This document shows, one piece after another, positions 23,360 through 30,226 of a stretch of 64,000 nucleotides of DNA. Under the pieces are notes generated by a model. That model did not search any database and had not been told where the DNA came from. It saw nothing but the letters and a program-made list of their open reading frames with translations. Origin of the DNA: Pelagibius sp. (GTDB lineage Bacteria; Pseudomonadota; Alphaproteobacteria; Kiloniellales; Kiloniellaceae); contig NZ_JANQKD010000053.1 of assembly GCF_028281305.1 (NCBI RefSeq), positions 1 through 64,000 on the forward strand, in the 5' to 3' direction. The translations under genes and the position numbers were made by a program. Positions within the stretch are counted from its first letter, which is position 1. Each line of letters begins with the position of its first letter.

Positions 23360-24354
23360 GCAGCCCCGCTGTATCCAAGGCTGCGAAGGGTGGCGAAGGG
23401 CCGATGTTCGGCCGTGTCGCCCTGCTGGGGGCCGGGCTCATCGGCTCGTCCCTGGCCTGGGCCATGCGGGCGCGGGGACTGGCGGACCACGTCGCCGCCC
23501 ATTCCAGGCGTGCCGAAACCCGCGCGAAGATCGAGGAACTTGGGTTCGCCGATTCCGTTCATGCCGATCCCGGCGATGCGGTTGAGGGGGCGGATCTCGT
23601 TTTCTTCTGCGTGCCCGTGGGCGCCAACGCTGCGGTGGCCGAGGCGATCGGTCCGCGCCTTACCCCGGGCGCCATCGTCACCGATGTCGGCTCGGTCAAA
23701 CAGGCGGTGATCCGCGACATCGGCCCCACCTTGCCCGAAGGCGTGCACTTCATTCCCGGCCACCCTGTCGCCGGTACCGAGTTTTCAGGGCCGGAGGCCG
23801 GTTTCGCCGACCTCTTCGAGCAGCGCTGGTGCATCCTGACGCCGCCGCCGGGCACCCACGAGGACCAGGTGGAACGGCTGGTGCGCTTGTGGCAGGCCCT
23901 GGGCTCGACGGTCCAGATCATGGATGCGGCCCATCACGACAAGGTGCTGGCCATCACCTCTCACCTGCCGCACCTCATCGCCTATACCATCGTCGGCACG
24001 GCCACCGACCTGGAGGAGAGCGAGCGCGCCGAGGTGGTGAAGTTCTCCGCCGGCGGCTTCCGCGACTTCACCCGCATCGCCGGTTCCGACCCCATCATGT
24101 GGCGCGATGTCTTCCTGCATAACCGGGAATCGGTGCTGGAGATGCTGCAGCGTTTCTCGGAGGACCTGACGGCGCTGCAGCGCGCGATCCGTTGGGGCGA
24201 GGGCGAGACCCTGGAGGGGCTGTTCCGCCGCACGCGGGAAATCCGCGCCGGCATCATCGATGCCCACCAGGCCGGCTCCTTCGATCCTAGAGAACCGGAG
24301 CGATCGGGAACAACGGGACCGGTCCCAGAAAAAGCAGGCCGTCCCGCAGAGTAA
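23356..24354 (+). CDS. tyrC: prephenate/arogenate dehydrogenase TyrC
   Basis: A 332-residue NAD(P)-dependent oxidative decarboxylase for tyrosine synthesis. It has the Rossmann motif ALLGAGLIGSSLAWAM (about 22-37). DVGSVKQAV, FIPGHPVAGTEFSGPEAGFA (active-site His) and ITSHLPHLIAYTIVGTATD follow, with the dimerisation helix region RFSEDLTALQRAIRWGEGE. It starts by ATGA overlap with hisC. Its last 68 bp are antisense to the end of the DUF2125 gene, so the final residues (from about 310) are probably a non-conserved tail. Confidence 0.94.
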   Translation: MSSPAVSKAAKGGEGPMFGRVALLGAGLIGSSLAWAMRARGLADHVAAHSRRAETRAKIEELGFADSVHADPGDAVEGADLVFFCVPVGANAAVAEAIGPRLTPGAIVTDVGSVKQAVIRDIGPTLPEGVHFIPGHPVAGTEFSGPEAGFADLFEQRWCILTPPPGTHEDQVERLVRLWQALGSTVQIMDAAHHDKVLAITSHLPHLIAYTIVGTATDLEESERAEVVKFSAGGFRDFTRIAGSDPIMWRDVFLHNRESVLEMLQRFSEDLTALQRAIRWGEGETLEGLFRRTREIRAGIIDAHQAGSFDPREPERSGTTGPVPEKAGRPAE

Positions 24355-25309
24355 TCGGCGCTTCCAGCACCGTCGTCCCGCTGGCGGCGTCGCGCCGTCC
24401 CATGGCGGCTACGGCAAGCTGCGCGGCGAAGGCGGCTTCCGGCTTGATGCGCCCGTCTTCGACAAGACGTTCGATGATCTCGTCCGCGCCCTTCAGTTTG
24501 GTATCGAACAGCCCGGCCGGGCGCAGCGCCTGATCGAGGCCGAGCCGCCCTTCGGCCTGCAGGTCAAGGGGCCCCCAGAGCGCCGAGAGGCTTTCGAAGC
24601 GCCAGAGGCCGCCGGCATCGCGCCACTGCGGCAGAGACTCCGCCGGCTTTCCGCGGGGAATGCCGCCGACCACCGTGGAGCGGAAGGACAGCCGCTCCAG
24701 GGAATCGCCGAGGGGACCGCCTTCGCCCTCAGGCAGGCTCACGGAGACCGCCTCTCCCATGAGGTTCAACGCGTCGGGGTCGCCGGCCTGCGACGGCCGC
24801 AGCGGGCCCAGGCGGGCCGTCAGCCGGTCCACCGTCAGCGGCTTCAGGTCCGGCCCATTCACCCGCAGGGCGCCGAGATCGACGGAGGCGCTGTCGACCT
24901 GGCCGTCAAGGGCCAGCACCACCTGCCCGCGGGCCTCCCCCGTTGCGACATCGGCGGCCCGTTCCTCCTGCCCCTCGGCCAGGCGAAGCTGGTGCGTGCC
25001 GGGGAACGCGAGATCGATGGTGAAGGGATCCCAGAGCTTCGCCTCCCCCCGGATCGGCGGCCCCTGCCAGCTCAACCCCTGTGGACTGACCGCCTTGGGC
25101 TGGTTGAAGGTGACCGTCAGGGCGAAGGGAAAGCCGCCCATATGGGGGCCGTCGTAGTCGATCTCATAGCCGCGTTCGATCTGCTCGGCACGCCAGCGCG
25201 CGATGCCTTCGGCCAGGGCCTGCGAAGCCCAGTACCAGTAGGCCGATACCGCCAGCGCAAAGACCACGAGGGCGACCGTGCCGAGGCTGACGAGGCGGGT
25301 GCGACGCAT
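24287..25309 (-). CDS. DUF2125 family protein, membrane-anchored periplasmic
   Basis: 340 residues. A single N-terminal transmembrane/signal helix (about 5-25, LVSLGTVALVVFALAVSAYW) is followed by a large beta-rich domain (YDGPHMGGFPFALTVTFNQP is characteristic of DUF2125 in alphaproteobacteria). Probably periplasmic; no function is established. ATG 25309 is taken, since GGAG lies 9-10 nt upstream, rather than a start eight codons earlier. It converges on tyrC with a 68-bp coding overlap. Confidence 0.85.
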   Translation of the reverse strand: MRRTRLVSLGTVALVVFALAVSAYWYWASQALAEGIARWRAEQIERGYEIDYDGPHMGGFPFALTVTFNQPKAVSPQGLSWQGPPIRGEAKLWDPFTIDLAFPGTHQLRLAEGQEERAADVATGEARGQVVLALDGQVDSASVDLGALRVNGPDLKPLTVDRLTARLGPLRPSQAGDPDALNLMGEAVSVSLPEGEGGPLGDSLERLSFRSTVVGGIPRGKPAESLPQWRDAGGLWRFESLSALWGPLDLQAEGRLGLDQALRPAGLFDTKLKGADEIIERLVEDGRIKPEAAFAAQLAVAAMGRRDAASGTTVLEAPITLRDGLLFLGPVPLFPIAPVL

Positions 25310-25500
25310 GCGCGCGGTGGCTCCTTTCCGCAAGGGGTCGGGCTGCGGGCTTCGCAGATCGGCGCATCATAGCCGCGCCGGCCCTCTTGTTGCGGATCAA
25401 ATTGCCGCTGTCCATTCCAGGGGTAGGCTGGAGCAGGCTTGAGGGGGCGGCTGCGATTTGTTGGTATAGCAGCCGCTGCGCAGATGTATCGGAACACAAA

Positions 25501-26178
25501 ATGACGGAAAGCCGGTGGCCGGAGTTCGACGACCCCGACAACCTCACGCCCGAGGAACTGGCCGCCCGCCGTCTCGACCTCCCGGATGGTCAGGATTTCT
25601 GGGTTTTCGGCTACGGCTCGCTCATGTGGCACCCCGGCTTTCCCCACGTCGAGGTGCGCATCGCCCGCCTGAACGGCTTCCACCGTAGCTTCTGCGTCTT
25701 CTCCCACCGCTACCGCGGTACGCCACAGGTCCCGGGGCTGGTGCTGGGGCTTGACCGCGGCGGGTCCTGCCGCGGGCTGGTGTTCCGGGTCCCCGCCGGC
25801 GAGGGCGAGGAGGTGCTGGACTACCTCTACGCGCGGGAGATGATCACCGGCGTCTATCATCCGTCCTGGCGGGCCGCCAAGACCGATCAGGGCAGCGTCT
25901 CGGCGATTACCTTCGTCGTCGACCGCGCCCACCGCCAGTACGCCGGCGGGCTCAGCCACGACGATATGGTGGGTCTCATCCTGCAAGGCCACGGCGCCCG
26001 CGGGCCCTGCATGGAGTATCTCGAGAACACCGTGCACCACCTTCAGGCCCTGGGCCTGCGCGACCGCGCCCTCGAGCGCCTGCTGAAGGAAGCCAAGGCA
26101 AGGCGCGCCGCCTCCGGTTCTTCCGACTCCGGTTCTTCCGACTCCGGGGCGGCCGATCGGGGGCTCGTCACATCTTAG
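25501..26178 (+). CDS. gamma-glutamylcyclotransferase (ChaC-type)
   Basis: A 225-residue ChaC-like enzyme that cleaves glutathione to 5-oxoproline and Cys-Gly. The substrate loop FGYGSLMWHPGF is near residue 36. The catalytic Glu lies in LYAREMITGVYHP (about 118), and ENTVHHLQALGLRD near the C-terminus is also typical. The tail contains the direct repeat SGSSDSGSSDSG, encoded by duplicated 15-bp units. It lies 98 bp upstream of the YHS protein, on the same strand. A link to copper or thiol stress handled by the next operon is conceivable but is inference. Confidence 0.92.
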   Translation: MTESRWPEFDDPDNLTPEELAARRLDLPDGQDFWVFGYGSLMWHPGFPHVEVRIARLNGFHRSFCVFSHRYRGTPQVPGLVLGLDRGGSCRGLVFRVPAGEGEEVLDYLYAREMITGVYHPSWRAAKTDQGSVSAITFVVDRAHRQYAGGLSHDDMVGLILQGHGARGPCMEYLENTVHHLQALGLRDRALERLLKEAKARRAASGSSDSGSSDSGAADRGLVTS

Positions 26179-26276
26179 TGTAGTGTCGTGAATTGATCGC
26201 AGGGGCTGTTGGTCAATATTTCTAGGCCATCAGGCACCCGCCTGTCCCTTCAACAGGAGATGCGAGGTTCTCCCCC

Positions 26277-26819
26277 ATGATGCGCAAGCTATTACTGGCA
26301 TCGGCCCTGTCGGTGATGACCGTTGGCGCGGCCCAGGCCGGCGAGCAGTACGTTGACGAAACCGGCTACGCGATCAGCGGCTATGACGCGGTGGCCTATT
26401 TCGACCTGAAGCAGAACCCCGTCGGCTCCCAGCAGCCCCAGGCGGTGCGCGGCAAGGCCGGCATCACCGCCGAGTACAATGGCGCCACCTGGGCTTTCGC
26501 GAACGAGGCAAACCGCGACAAGTTCGTTGCCGATCCGGCGAAGTACGCGCCCCAGTACGACGGTCACTGCGCCTATGGTCTGGCCCAGGGCGGCAAGGTC
26601 CCCGCCAATCCCAACCTCTGGCGCATTGTGGACGGTAAGCTCTATTTGAACATCACGCCGACGGTGGTCGGGTTCTGGGAGGGCGATATTCCCGGTAACC
26701 TCGAGAAGGCCGACGGCATCTGGTCGAAGAAGGAACCCCTTCCCGCTTCAACCAAGAGCTGGAAGGCCATCAATGACAATGACGGAACCTACGAGGGTCC
26801 GGCCCCCATTGAAGGATAG
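26277..26819 (+). CDS. secreted YHS-domain protein
   Basis: 180 residues with a clear signal peptide (about 1-21, cleavage after AQA). A YHS-like domain follows: GYAISGYDAVAYFDLKQNP, TWAFANEANRDKFVADPAKY and a Cys in GHCAYGLAQGG. YHS domains in periplasmic or secreted proteins are often tied to copper handling. It contains a single cysteine after the signal. It precedes the bufferin precursor gene by 110 bp on the same strand, with AGGAGA ahead of its own start, and may be part of the same copper response. Confidence 0.85.
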   Translation: MMRKLLLASALSVMTVGAAQAGEQYVDETGYAISGYDAVAYFDLKQNPVGSQQPQAVRGKAGITAEYNGATWAFANEANRDKFVADPAKYAPQYDGHCAYGLAQGGKVPANPNLWRIVDGKLYLNITPTVVGFWEGDIPGNLEKADGIWSKKEPLPASTKSWKAINDNDGTYEGPAPIEG

Positions 26820-26929
26820 CCTTCGGCTTACACCGGACCGCGTTTCGGATCTGTTGTAAGCTCTGCCAGCGGGGCTTCCGCAGATCGGGGATCGGATGAG
26901 GAACATTCATCAAGAGGAGACATCAGTCT

Positions 26930-27259
26930 ATGGCTGAAAAAGGGAAAGTTGTATCAGCGGCGATGATCGCCGGTGCTGTGGCTCTGGCGGTTTCGGCAAC
27001 CGCGCAGGTGACGCCGGCCAGCGCCCAGGCAAAGGAAAAGTGCTATGGGATCTCTCTGGCCGGTCAGAACGACTGCGCTGCGGGCCCCGGCACGACCTGC
27101 GCCGGCACCTCGACCGTGGACTATCAGGGCAATGCCTGGACCTTGGTTCCGGCCGGGGACTGCCTGAAGTACGGCGTCGAGGAAACGACGGCGGACTTCG
27201 AGCTTCCGGGTGACCGCAAGGGCTCGCTGGAGGCTATTGACCGCGACCTGCCGGCCTGA
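26930..27259 (+). CDS. bufA: bufferin precursor peptide BufA (DUF2282)
   Basis: A 109-residue ribosomally made, modified peptide precursor of the DUF2282 family. A signal peptide of about 33 residues ends near ASAQA. The core has four cysteines: [18 protein letters not shown] and AGDCLKYG. In characterised bufferins the two central cysteines are converted by the MNIO enzyme and the peptide binds copper in the periplasm. The core here, with [16 protein letters not shown], fits that family closely. AGAGGAG lies upstream. It is followed by two hairpins, then the modification genes. Confidence 0.93.
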
Positions 27260-27273
27260 CGCCGGCCTCAAGG

Positions 27274-27302
27274 ACCGCCGGCCCGTCCTTGGACGGGGCG
27301 GT
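27274..27302 (+). promoter_or_regulatory. hairpin 1 downstream of the bufferin precursor
   Basis: CCCGTCC-TT-GGACGGG forms a perfect 7-bp stem with a 2-nt loop, extended by ACCGC/GCGGT across a 3-nt bulge. It is 15 bp past the bufA stop. It could protect the transcript's 3' end or slow RNA polymerase. Confidence 0.6.
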
Positions 27303-27313
27303 TTGAAGGGGAG

Positions 27314-27370
27314 CGCCGGTCCGGGCAAAGCAGCAGCGATGACCGGACCGGCGTTCGCCTCTTTTCTCTC
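27314..27370 (+). terminator. hairpin 2 with T-rich tail, attenuator-like, between bufA and bufB
   Basis: A perfect 11-bp stem, CGCCGGTCCGG (27314-27324) with CCGGACCGGCG (27343-27353), has an 18-nt loop and is followed by the pyrimidine run TTCGCCTCTTTTCTCTC. Its position between precursor and enzyme genes fits partial termination that keeps precursor mRNA in excess. Confidence 0.6.
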
Positions 27371-27412
27371 AACCTTGAACCTGTTTAATCCTGACAGATG
27401 CTGTGACTGGTG

Positions 27413-28312
27413 ATGGCGCGTTCTTCGACAATTCCAGCCCGCGCGGGTGTCGGCCTGAAGGCCCAGCACTACGAGGCTGTTCTGGACGGCCGGCCGGACC
27501 TGGGCTGGTTCGAGGTCCATGCCGAGAACTACATGGGCGCCGGCGGGCCGCCGCATCACTACCTGACGCGCATCCGCCGCGACTACCCGCTTTCGCTGCA
27601 CGGCGTCGGGCTGTCCATCGGCGGGGCGGCGCCCCTCGACGAAGCGCATCTGGCACGCTTCAAGGATCTGGCCGAGCGCTATGAGCCTGGCCTGGTGAGC
27701 GAACACCTCGCCTGGTCGACGCACAACGACATCTACTTCAACGATCTGCTGCCGCTGCCCTACACCAATGAGACGGTGGTGCGGGTGAGCGACCACCTGG
27801 AACGCATGCAGGATGTGGTGGGTCACCGCGTTCTGCTGGAAAACCCCTCCACCTACGTCACCTTCAGGGAAAGCACCATGAGCGAGATCGATTTCCTGAA
27901 GGCGGTGGTGAAACTCAGCGGCTGCGGCCTGCTGCTGGACGTGAACAACGTCATGGTCTCCGCCACCAACCAGGGTACGGCCCCCGAGGCCTACATCGAC
28001 TCCTTTCCTCTGGAGCATGTCGGCGAAATCCACCTCGGCGGGCACGCCCGCGAAGACGACGACCAGGGCAACACGCTGCTGATCGATGCCCACGACCGGG
28101 CGGTGGATGACGCTGTCTGGCGGCTTTACGACCGCAGCCTTGCCCGCGGCGGTGCCAAGCCCACCCTCATCGAATGGGATAACGACCTGCCTGACTGGGA
28201 GACTCTTTATTCCGAGGCCCGGGCCGCCGAGCAGCTGCTCGAGGTCCGCAAGATCTCCGGCCGCGTGCCGCCGCTGGCGAAGCGCCGCAGAGCCCATGTC
28301 GCCGCAGGCTGA
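27413..28312 (+). CDS. bufB: MNIO-family peptide-modifying enzyme BufB (DUF692)
   Basis: A 299-residue multinuclear non-heme iron oxidase of the DUF692 family, with a TIM-barrel fold. Iron-binding and catalytic segments are all visible: SLHGVGLSIGG, VSEHLAWS, VLLENPSTYV, GLLLDVNNVMVSA, GEIHLGGH and LIEWDND. It is expected to oxidise cysteines of the BufA precursor, with BufC delivering the substrate. GARAGVGLKAQHYEAVL-type N-terminal sequence is typical. The ATG at 27413 is preceded by an in-frame GTG. The 3' end overlaps bufC by 17 bp. Confidence 0.94.
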   Translation: MARSSTIPARAGVGLKAQHYEAVLDGRPDLGWFEVHAENYMGAGGPPHHYLTRIRRDYPLSLHGVGLSIGGAAPLDEAHLARFKDLAERYEPGLVSEHLAWSTHNDIYFNDLLPLPYTNETVVRVSDHLERMQDVVGHRVLLENPSTYVTFRESTMSEIDFLKAVVKLSGCGLLLDVNNVMVSATNQGTAPEAYIDSFPLEHVGEIHLGGHAREDDDQGNTLLIDAHDRAVDDAVWRLYDRSLARGGAKPTLIEWDNDLPDWETLYSEARAAEQLLEVRKISGRVPPLAKRRRAHVAAG

Positions 28313-29099
28313 CTCGCTGGCTGCGCTGCAGCAGGCGTTTTCCGCCGCGCTGCGCGACGCTGCGCAGCCGGTGCCGGCGCCAATTGCGGTGGGTGCCGAG
28401 GGGCCCGCCGCCCGCGGCTTCGACGTCTACCGCAACAATGTGGCGGTCAGCCTCATCGAAGCGCTCGAGGCCGCCTTTCCGGTGGTCCTTCGGCTGGTCG
28501 GCGCGGACTTCTTCAAGGCGACGGCCAGGGCCTACATCGCCGAGGAACCGCCACGGTCGCCCGTACTGCTGCTGTATGGCCGGGGCTTCGGGGATTTTCT
28601 CGAGACCTTCCCTCCGGCTGCGGGTGTGCCTTATCTGGGGGACATGGCACGGCTGGAGTGGGCGCAACTCTACGCTTACCACGCCAGCGACGCCGCCCCC
28701 CTGGAGATTGACTGCCTCTCGGCGGTGCCGCCGGCCGAGCTCGGCAGCCTGTGCTTCGTGCTCCATCCCTCCCTCCATCTCATCCGCTCGCGCTGGCCGG
28801 TCGTCTCGCTCTGGGCTGCGAGCGGAGGGGCGGCTGATGAGACGGACATCGACATGAAGAGCGGCCAGGAAGCTGCGGTCATTCGCCCGGCCTTGAAGGT
28901 GGAAACCCGCCTGCTCCCGCCAGGCGGCCACGACTTCATCGCCGACCTGATGGAAGGCGCAACCTTGGGCGCGGCTGCCGAACGGGCCGTCGAGCGCGAT
29001 CCGGCGTTCGACCTTGCCGTCCATCTGCAGGGCCTTTTCGAGATCGGCGCCGTGACCGCGCTCCTGCCTTCGGGCCCTGATACCCAGACACTCCAGTAA
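28296..29099 (+). CDS. bufC: BufB partner protein BufC (DUF2063)
   Basis: 267 residues. An N-terminal DUF2063 helical domain occupies about 5-95 (LQQAFSAALRDAAQPVP; FDVYRNNVAVSLIEALEAAF, VVLRLVGADFFKATARAYIA). A C-terminal winged-helix-like RRE domain probably binds the precursor leader. DUF2063 proteins are obligate partners of DUF692 enzymes. The overlap with bufB implies coupled synthesis of the complex. C-terminal FDLAVHLQGLFEIGAVTAL resembles the leader-recognition end. Confidence 0.92.
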   Translation: MSPQADSLAALQQAFSAALRDAAQPVPAPIAVGAEGPAARGFDVYRNNVAVSLIEALEAAFPVVLRLVGADFFKATARAYIAEEPPRSPVLLLYGRGFGDFLETFPPAAGVPYLGDMARLEWAQLYAYHASDAAPLEIDCLSAVPPAELGSLCFVLHPSLHLIRSRWPVVSLWAASGGAADETDIDMKSGQEAAVIRPALKVETRLLPPGGHDFIADLMEGATLGAAAERAVERDPAFDLAVHLQGLFEIGAVTALLPSGPDTQTLQ

Positions 29100-29112
29100 G
29101 GATGAACGAGAG

Positions 29113-29709
29113 ATGATGACCCGATTGACAGCAGTTCATGGCCGGATCTTCGGTGCGGTGGAGGCGAAGCTGGACGGCTGGTTCCTGGGCCTGTCTGCGC
29201 GCCTGGTCTTTGCAGCCGTGCTCGCGGTCTACTATCTGCATTCCGCCGCCACCAAGGTAGGAGAGGGTGTCCTCGGGTTTTTCAGCATCGGCGACAACGC
29301 CTACTTCCAGATCCTGCCCTCGGTGGTGGAGGCCTACGGTTACGATGCCTCCCAGGTGCCCTTCTTTCCCTACGACCTCATTGTCTTCGCCGGCACCTAT
29401 GCGGAGTTCGTCCTTCCGATACTGATCGTGCTGGGGCTCTTCACGCGGCTTGCCGCTCTCGGCATGATCGGCTTTATCGTCGTGCAGTCCTATGTCGATA
29501 TCGCCTTCCACGGCGTCGACGCGGCCACCATCGGCAGTTGGTTCGACCGCCTGCCAAGCGCGGCCATCCTCGACCAACGGGCGCTCTGGGTCTTCCTCTT
29601 GGTTTATCTCGTTGTGCGCGGCGCCGGCGCGCTCTCTCTGGACGCTGTGTTCGGGCGTGTGTTGGCGGGAAGGGGCCCCGCCGCTGCGGGGCAGATGCAC
29701 TTGCAATAG
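29113..29709 (+). CDS. bufD: DoxX-family membrane protein of the bufferin operon
   Basis: A 198-residue inner-membrane protein with four hydrophobic segments typical of DoxX (LSARLVFAAVLAVYYLHSAA; YAEFVLPILIVLGLFTRLAA; ALWVFLLVYLVVRGAGALSL). DoxX proteins close bufferin operons and are thought to help redox or transport of copper or the peptide; the exact role is unproven. It begins 13 bp after bufC. Confidence 0.9.
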   Translation: MMTRLTAVHGRIFGAVEAKLDGWFLGLSARLVFAAVLAVYYLHSAATKVGEGVLGFFSIGDNAYFQILPSVVEAYGYDASQVPFFPYDLIVFAGTYAEFVLPILIVLGLFTRLAALGMIGFIVVQSYVDIAFHGVDAATIGSWFDRLPSAAILDQRALWVFLLVYLVVRGAGALSLDAVFGRVLAGRGPAAAGQMHLQ

Positions 29710-29737
29710 CCGCAGCACCGGTTGGGCCTGGCGCGCC

Positions 29738-30226
29738 CTAAAGCTTCGTCACCAGGTTGATCCACTCATCCTTGTCGCTGCGCCCGAAGGGTGCGACTTT
29801 CGGGATGCGCTTTCCGGTGGGCTGGTAGCCGAAGTTGCGCTGGTACCAGGCGACCACGCGCTCGTCATCGGCGTTGGTGTAGAGTTCCTTGATGCCCTGA
29901 TCGCGCAGATAGTCCTGGCGTGTCTGCTGAAGCGCCGCCCCCACGTTGTGGCCGCGATAGGCTGGGTCGACCGCCAGCAAGGTGGTCTTGGCTGTGGTCG
30001 CATCGAGGATCCGATAGCCGCCGACGCCGATCACGACGCCGTCGAGTTCCGCCACGAAACAGTCGCTGAGAGGGAAGCTGGGCATCTCCGGGCCGCCGAT
30101 GTGATGAAAGTTGGCGCCTTCCAGCACTTCCATCATGCGCGGCCAGTCTTCCTCGACCGGGCGGCGGATCTTGACCTTGGGATCTGCGGCGGGCTTGTCC
30201 AAAGCTTCAGGCTTCCTTGCGGGCAC
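29738..30226 (-). CDS. GNAT-family N-acetyltransferase
   Basis: A 162-residue acetyltransferase. The acetyl-CoA motif is LLAVDPAYRGHNVGAALQQT (about 83-102). The last motif NADDERVVAWYQRNFGYQPT gives the terminal strand pair. The N-terminal arm is VKIRRPVEEDWPRMMEVLEG. The acceptor is unknown. It converges on the DoxX gene and lies 139 bp downstream of nrdJ on the same strand. Confidence 0.9.
   Translation of the reverse strand: MPARKPEALDKPAADPKVKIRRPVEEDWPRMMEVLEGANFHHIGGPEMPSFPLSDCFVAELDGVVIGVGGYRILDATTAKTTLLAVDPAYRGHNVGAALQQTRQDYLRDQGIKELYTNADDERVVAWYQRNFGYQPTGKRIPKVAPFGRSDKDEWINLVTKL

What the first reader, a model, noticed from the sequence alone, without database searches (positions are those of the whole stretch)
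26277..29709. Complete bufferin-type operon with a secreted YHS protein directly upstream
The sequence shows DUF2282 precursor, DUF692 enzyme, DUF2063 partner and DoxX protein in order, with a signal-bearing YHS protein 110 bp before the precursor and a glutathione-cleaving ChaC enzyme before that. The four-gene operon is established as a copper-binding modified peptide system (bufferins). The YHS protein as an extra component, perhaps a copper carrier or chaperone for the peptide, is my inference and may be undescribed.
Basis: partly seen in the sequence, partly recalled or inferred. Interest (0 to 1): 0.7.

Follow-up and report, generated by a model that had tools for sequence, protein, structure and literature searches.

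The report
Copper-peptide operon with extra YHS protein
This is a standard operon for a copper-binding modified peptide (a bufferin) that has, as its first gene, an exported YHS-family protein, and because several bacterial lineages have put such a gene next to the peptide gene it is probably an undescribed helper of this copper-defence system.

Summary
In detail: ChaC, an exported YHS protein, then bufA (DUF2282), bufB (MNIO/DUF692), bufC (DUF2063) and doxX, with 110 bp between YHS and bufA. In the window's family a distinctive YHS subfamily is in all 12 genomes with DUF2282 and none of 11 without. A YHS gene lies within 1 kb upstream, same strand, in 9 of 118 DUF2282 loci of a class sample (about 0.01 expected, uncorrected for relatedness) and 5 of 112 of a phylum sample. 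The link needs 11 changes on the YHS tree and 9 on the MNIO tree, so it arose repeatedly, though most bufferin operons lack it. A conserved promoter-like element precedes YHS, not bufA. A plasmid carries the whole unit. ChaC is only a genus-level neighbour. Two loci without a nearby MNIO keep YHS, bufA and doxX, suggesting a role with the exported peptide. YHS has one cysteine, at the position that is selenocysteine in some relatives. Copper or thiol handling through it is inference. I found no print on the link.

The parts
26167..26196 (+). Conserved promoter-like element GT[AC]AC[AG]-N16-TGA[AT], 80 bp before the YHS start; its first bases overlap the end of ChaC
   Evidence: Aligned block before YHS in the family and in L054; the pattern built from these occurs once in the own genome at up to 3 mismatches and once in the window, 0 in 100 shuffles
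26277..26819 (+). YHS_seleno-family protein, 180 aa, signal peptide by eye, single cysteine (Cys98)
   Evidence: PF04945, NF041384; subfamily alignment; model pLDDT 92.2
26568..26570 (+). Codon of Cys98 in the G-H-C motif, the position that is selenocysteine (GxU) in selenoprotein members of NF041384
   Evidence: G-x-C in 145 of 147 distinct sequences held; GxU motif from a table in PMC13188914
26930..27259 (+). bufA: Buf1 (DUF2282) bufferin precursor, four cysteines, Sec signal by eye
   Evidence: PF10048 83 bits
27413..28312 (+). bufB: MNIO (DUF692) bufferin maturase
   Evidence: PF05114 346.7 bits, NF050167 383.9 bits over cut-off
28296..29099 (+). bufC: DUF2063 partner protein
   Evidence: PF09836 95.4 bits
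29113..29709 (+). doxX: DoxX-family membrane protein
   Evidence: PF07681 27.8 bits
25501..26178 (+). ChaC gamma-glutamylcyclotransferase; neighbour, not part of the unit
   Evidence: PF04752 132.4 bits; near the operon only in the genus and often separated from YHS

Best explanation
A five-gene variant of the Buf1 bufferin operon, YHS-bufA-bufB-bufC-doxX, probably read from one promoter in front of YHS. BufB with BufC turn central cysteines of BufA into copper-binding thiooxazoles and the peptide is exported by Sec (established for bufferins, PMC12452194; not tested here). The YHS protein is exported to the same compartment and acts with the exported peptide rather than in its maturation. The most likely chemistry is that its single invariant Cys98 binds Cu(I), or offers a thiol, to pass copper to or from the bufferin or to protect it. 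Shown by computation: the genes, the recurrent adjacency, the repeated origins, the conserved upstream element. Inferred: co-transcription, periplasmic partnership, and the copper or thiol chemistry. I put the functional link at about 0.85, the copper-relay version at about 0.4 and a thiol-redox version at about 0.3.
For: Family: subfamily in 12 of 12 genomes with DUF2282 and 0 of 11 without; order: 15 of 26 and 0 of 35, all 15 copies directly upstream of DUF2282. Class 9 of 118 and phylum 5 of 112 DUF2282 loci with YHS within 1 kb upstream on the same strand, 0.012 expected in the class sample. Repeated origins on two trees. Conserved element before YHS, none in the YHS-bufA gap. Unit on a mobilizable plasmid; YHS last in the operon in Aminobacter. 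Divergent AraC- or TetR-type regulators before YHS in other lineages. YHS-bufA-doxX kept without a nearby MNIO in 2 loci. One cysteine, Sec in some relatives.
Against: Most bufferin operons lack YHS: 109 of 118 and 107 of 112 loci in the samples, and none of 40 fetched control loci has one. The same GHC subfamily also stands alone: 15 of 20 named loci, including Thalassospira and Rhodobacteraceae, and five further unnamed ones (L148-L152). The chance expectation ignores relatedness. The MNIO-less argument rests on 2 loci, whose genomes hold other DUF2282 loci. No copper ligand set beyond one cysteine is visible; Foldseek found no significant match. No expression or binding data.
Confidence: 0.6

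Rival explanations
1. The YHS protein is a periplasmic thiol-redox or sulfur-handling partner: its single cysteine reduces, protects or carries sulfur for bufferin or DoxX under copper or oxidative stress, rather than carrying copper.
For: Cys98 is at the selenocysteine position of selenoprotein members. A thioredoxin gene lies between YHS and bufA in L142 (and by eye in L141) and after doxX in L113. In Aminobacter YHS sits beside a GDCCVxC (seleno)protein. In several Rhodobacteraceae the YHS gene is followed by a rhodanese-like gene (by eye).
Against: One cysteine only, so no internal disulfide cycle; the thioredoxins appear only in some gamma loci and have no signal peptide by eye; no direct data.
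Confidence: 0.3
2. The YHS protein is a second substrate of the MNIO, modified at Cys98.
For: It is exported, has a cysteine, and its gene precedes the MNIO gene, as precursors do; tandem precursor genes are reported for some clusters (PMC12452194, section 14).
Against: YHS stays with bufA and doxX at 2 loci without a nearby MNIO; the cysteine is invariant in copies not next to any buf gene and is selenocysteine in some relatives.
Confidence: 0.05
3. YHS is an unrelated gene that happens to sit beside the operon and was inherited with it.
For: Within the genus much of the region is syntenic; most bufferin operons lack YHS.
Against: Repeated linkage on two trees, same strand in all survey cases within 1 kb, across families and on plasmids, and co-absence in the family.
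Confidence: 0.05

Closest known systems
Buf1 (DUF2282) bufferin gene cluster, bufA-bufB-bufC-doxX (Antoine et al. 2025, PMC12452194)
   Same: Same four core genes in the same order, Sec-signal precursor with four cysteines, MNIO over the bufferin-maturase cut-off
   Different: A YHS_seleno gene precedes bufA, with a conserved promoter-like element before it; no sigma factor/NrsF gene beside it and no NrsF in the own genome
YHS domain-containing (seleno)protein family NF041384 / PF04945
   Same: Passes both curated cut-offs; invariant G-x-C cysteine
   Different: Belongs to a subfamily with GHC and a 9-residue insertion; many members of the family, and 15 of 20 named members of this subfamily, have no bufferin genes beside them
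Caulobacter sigma-F regulated DUF2282-DUF692-DUF2063-DoxX operon (PMC3511200)
   Same: Same core genes; upstream element loosely like GTAACC-N16-CGAA (passages)
   Different: No NrsF in the own genome or in the other 22 YHS-linked genomes tested, though the Thalassobaculum plasmid unit does have sigma factor and NrsF

Membership tests
Buf1 bufferin operon | DUF2282 precursor with four conserved cysteines and a Sec signal | tested here: met
   PF10048 83 bits; four cysteines in the sequence; the signal was judged by eye
Buf1 bufferin operon | bufABC gene order with MNIO and DUF2063 partner, then DoxX | tested here: met
   Coordinates and families
Buf1 bufferin operon | Thiooxazole formation and copper binding by the mature peptide | not testable with these tools
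   Needs mass spectrometry and copper assays
YHS_seleno family NF041384 | Score over the curated cut-off and the G-x-C/U motif | tested here: met
   128.8 against 70; GHC at residues 96-98; GxU motif of selenoprotein members
Copper chaperone (functional class) | Cu(I) binding and transfer to a partner | not testable with these tools
   One candidate thiol ligand in the sequence; model geometry was not available
Bufferin accessory gene (proposed here) | Adjacency to bufA beyond chance and by repeated origin | tested here: met
Bufferin accessory gene (proposed here) | Co-transcription and copper response | not testable with these tools
   No expression data; only a conserved element before YHS

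The most novel reading that the evidence does not exclude
YHS_seleno proteins are an unrecognised class of periplasmic Cu(I)/thiol carriers that load, unload or protect bufferins, and bacteria have recruited them to bufferin precursors several times independently, making YHS an additional functional type in copper-peptide systems.
Probability: 0.35. Interest if true: 0.72.

Novelty: new variant of a known kind. Interest (0 to 1): 0.52.

Why it matters
Bufferin clusters are described as a four-gene core with other conserved genes in extremely low proportions (PMC12452194). How copper gets on and off the peptide in the periplasm, and what DoxX does, are open as far as I know. A protein linked repeatedly to the precursor gene, and kept at two loci where no MNIO gene is nearby, is a concrete genetic handle on the step after export. 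It would also give a first functional context to a protein family of unknown function that includes selenoproteins.

Tried and rejected
ChaC as a component: rejected. In one search it was found only at the 6 genus relatives; at L153 and L154 it is over 1 kb from YHS (in L153 a PALP-family gene lies between), at L157 and L158 a GNAT gene lies between, and at L155 and L156 it is next to YHS. The flanks held upstream of YHS at the other loci run from about 0.8 to 6 kb.

Sigma-F/NrsF regulation: NrsF was found in 1 of 26 genomes searched, G019, which lacks the operon; 23 of the 26 hold a YHS-linked locus. Against a simple rule, the Thalassobaculum plasmid unit does have a sigma factor and NrsF. 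The upstream element resembles an ECF-type promoter only loosely and no regulator was identified. A sigma-70 scan of 26100-29800 found none.

A terminator between YHS and bufA: the scan gave one terminator-like match there (26833-26848) and 2 in the region, against 2.6 in shuffles; taken as chance, not excluded.

A hairpin after bufA as a mark of YHS-type operons: rejected. z below -2 in 20 of 33 linked and 17 of 40 control loci (simple base shuffles), and 0.0 at L156, the closest relative of the window.

The C-terminal extension (about 30 residues after the domain) as a mark of linked copies: not supported. Unlinked Thalassospira-type copies (L150, L152) have it and the linked f89 copies (L139, L140) have a different, shorter end. 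The paralogue rows were cut at the match, so that alignment says nothing on this point.

Solved relatives: phmmer gave only matches at E 0.11 or worse; Foldseek none at 0.001 or better, with short matches to toluene/phenol monooxygenase hydroxylases.

I first took G020:C164 for a GHC-subfamily copy (notes). Its readable stretch has GYCSW, then a stop, then remnants of a GHC-type copy in other frames: a decayed or chimeric locus. It is not among the 15 full-length copies but is among the 16 of 37 DUF2282 loci of the order with an adjacent YHS match.
Full report
What is there. On the + strand: ChaC 25501-26178, YHS 26277-26819, bufA 26930-27259, bufB 27413-28312, bufC 28296-29099, doxX 29113-29709, followed by a GNAT gene on the other strand. 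The bufferin core is complete. The YHS protein passes NCBIfam NF041384, 'YHS domain-containing (seleno)protein'. By eye it and BufA have Sec signal peptides.

A distinct YHS subfamily. Aligned with six paralogues of the same lineage, the buf-linked copies have G-H-C where the paralogues have G-Y-C or G-F-C, and a 9-residue insertion after the GYDxVAYF stretch. In the order (61 genomes) the profile gives a clean gap: 15 hits over 325 bits, all others under 132. In the family (23 genomes) all 12 genomes with DUF2282 have this subfamily and none of the 11 without does. In the order it is in 15 of the 26 genomes with DUF2282 and in 0 of 35 without. All 15 copies lie directly upstream of DUF2282 on the same strand. 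Counting any YHS match, 16 of the order's 37 DUF2282 loci have one directly upstream; the sixteenth, G020:C164, is a decayed or chimeric locus.

Survey beyond the order. The same genomes were searched for DUF2282 and NF041384 and the coordinates compared by eye. Class: 289 genomes, 118 DUF2282 loci, 9 with YHS within 1 kb upstream on the same strand (G000, G100, G226, G322, G110, G182, G285, G141, G255). Phylum: 398 genomes, 112 loci, 5 so placed (G000, G351, G637 twice, G664); in G351 and one G637 locus a thioredoxin gene lies between YHS and bufA. The own locus is in both counts, and the two samples share some genomes. At genome level the two families co-occur more than expected (odds ratio 2.4 in the class, 7.2 in the phylum), also uncorrected. 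So the link is far beyond chance yet present in a small minority of bufferin operons.

Named examples. In genome contigs (the best 80 loci kept of 558), 20 are GHC-subfamily members at 61% identity or more; 5 of the 20 have bufABC-doxX directly downstream and 15 do not. One of the five, L055, is the same contig as G032. Of the other 60 loci, some of them cut short, 2 have a different YHS type directly upstream of the operon (Marinobacter salinexigens L113, Glaciecola L126), and in Bosea L110 the YHS gene lies 2.3 kb from doxX on the other strand. Among plasmids, 82 records have a YHS match and I read 4 neighbourhoods: Thalassobaculum sp. OXR-137 carries YHS-DUF2282-DUF692-DUF2063-DoxX-sigma factor-NrsF on a mobilizable plasmid, with 33 bp between YHS and DUF2282; the other three have no buf genes beside YHS. 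In Aminobacter sp. SS-2016, found through its DUF2282, YHS is the last gene, after doxX and a GDCCVxC (seleno)protein gene.

Repeated origins. On a maximum-likelihood tree of 140 YHS sequences the label 'next to bufA' (33 rows) needs 11 changes, at least 7 forced by well-supported branches. On an MNIO tree of 71 rows (30 linked; 40 control loci chosen for lacking YHS, and Bosea L110 counted as unlinked) it needs 9, at least 5 forced. The rows are not a random sample, because loci were partly fetched for being linked or unlinked, so proportions mean nothing, but the scatter does. In the f89 genomes (G141, G255) a GHC-type YHS sits with an MNIO lineage away from the main one. Some changes may be losses rather than gains.

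The unit. In 12 loci of the family the 200 bases before YHS share a block (window 26167-26196, GTCACATCTTAGTGTAGTGTCGTGAATTGA; strongly alike in the 7 genus loci, a shorter core in the other 5), with a close match in Oceanibacterium L054, while the YHS-bufA gap shows no conserved block; in 14 loci it is 48-119 bp long. The element is less clear or not seen before YHS in several more distant linked loci. The pattern built from it occurs once in the own genome at up to 3 mismatches. It resembles, loosely, the Caulobacter sigma-F motif GTAACC-N16-CGAA (PMC3511200, passages), but NrsF is absent from the own genome and from the other 22 linked genomes tested. Elsewhere divergent regulators lie in front of YHS: AraC type with Cupin_6 (L113, L142, L143) and TetR type (L133, L134). 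ChaC is not part of the unit.

What YHS may do. Two loci (L136 in G110, L142 in G637) keep YHS, bufA and doxX but show no MNIO in about 8 kb; G637 has an MNIO at its second buf locus (L143), and G110 has a second DUF2282 whose surroundings I did not read. This suggests, on two cases, that YHS follows the peptide and DoxX, not the maturation enzymes. The whole window protein has one cysteine, and each of the 34 linked sequences has one in its matched region. The G-x-C motif is in 145 of 147 distinct sequences held, and in selenoprotein members the motif is GxU (PMC13188914, one passage). [quoted passage not shown] The model is confident (pLDDT 92.2, pTM 0.85) but has no significant fold match. 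A Cu(I) or thiol role is a reasoned guess.

Novelty. Searches for YHS with DUF692, DUF2282, DUF2063, DoxX or MNIO, with copper and periplasm, bufferin, copper and metal with periplasmic found no paper linking them in the open-access library; the single YHS-and-'bufferin' hit (the word also matches 'buffering') is a Rhodopseudomonas proteomics paper whose one YHS passage makes no such link. The bufferin-cluster survey PMC12452194 (outline with abstract, and sections 4, 13, 14, 18 and 20 read) has no occurrence of 'YHS' in its main text; its supplementary tables were not seen. Of PMC13097082, PMC12538549, PMC9312934, PMC10783030 and PMC12239567 I saw passages only. Most subscription papers, and the original bufferin paper, were not seen.

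Noticed in passing
L142 3412-3726; L141 between YHS and bufA; L113 9046-9390: Thioredoxin genes beside or inside YHS-linked bufferin operons of gammaproteobacteria: between YHS and bufA in L142 (Pfam) and by eye in L141, after doxX in L113.
   Followed up: partly
L211 (G020:C164), contig end: A decayed or chimeric second buf locus: a YHS stretch of another type ends in a stop and is followed by remnants of a GHC-type YHS in other frames, with a short broken bufB start after bufA.
   Followed up: partly
L064, L069, L070, L071, downstream of YHS: In several Rhodobacteraceae the GHC-type YHS gene has no bufferin genes beside it but is followed by a gene whose product looks rhodanese-like by eye (no Pfam scan).
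   Followed up: no
90 bases after bufA in 73 loci: A strong hairpin between bufA and bufB is common (z below -2 in 37 of 73 loci) in linked and control operons alike; it may set the ratio of precursor to enzyme.
   Followed up: partly
L208 7484-7741: A GDCCVxC (seleno)protein gene lies between doxX and YHS in an Aminobacter plasmid operon flanked by insertion-sequence transposases.
   Followed up: no
window 24287-25333: DUF2125-family gene on the minus strand, divergent from ChaC; the pair is also seen in the 6 genus relatives.
   Followed up: no
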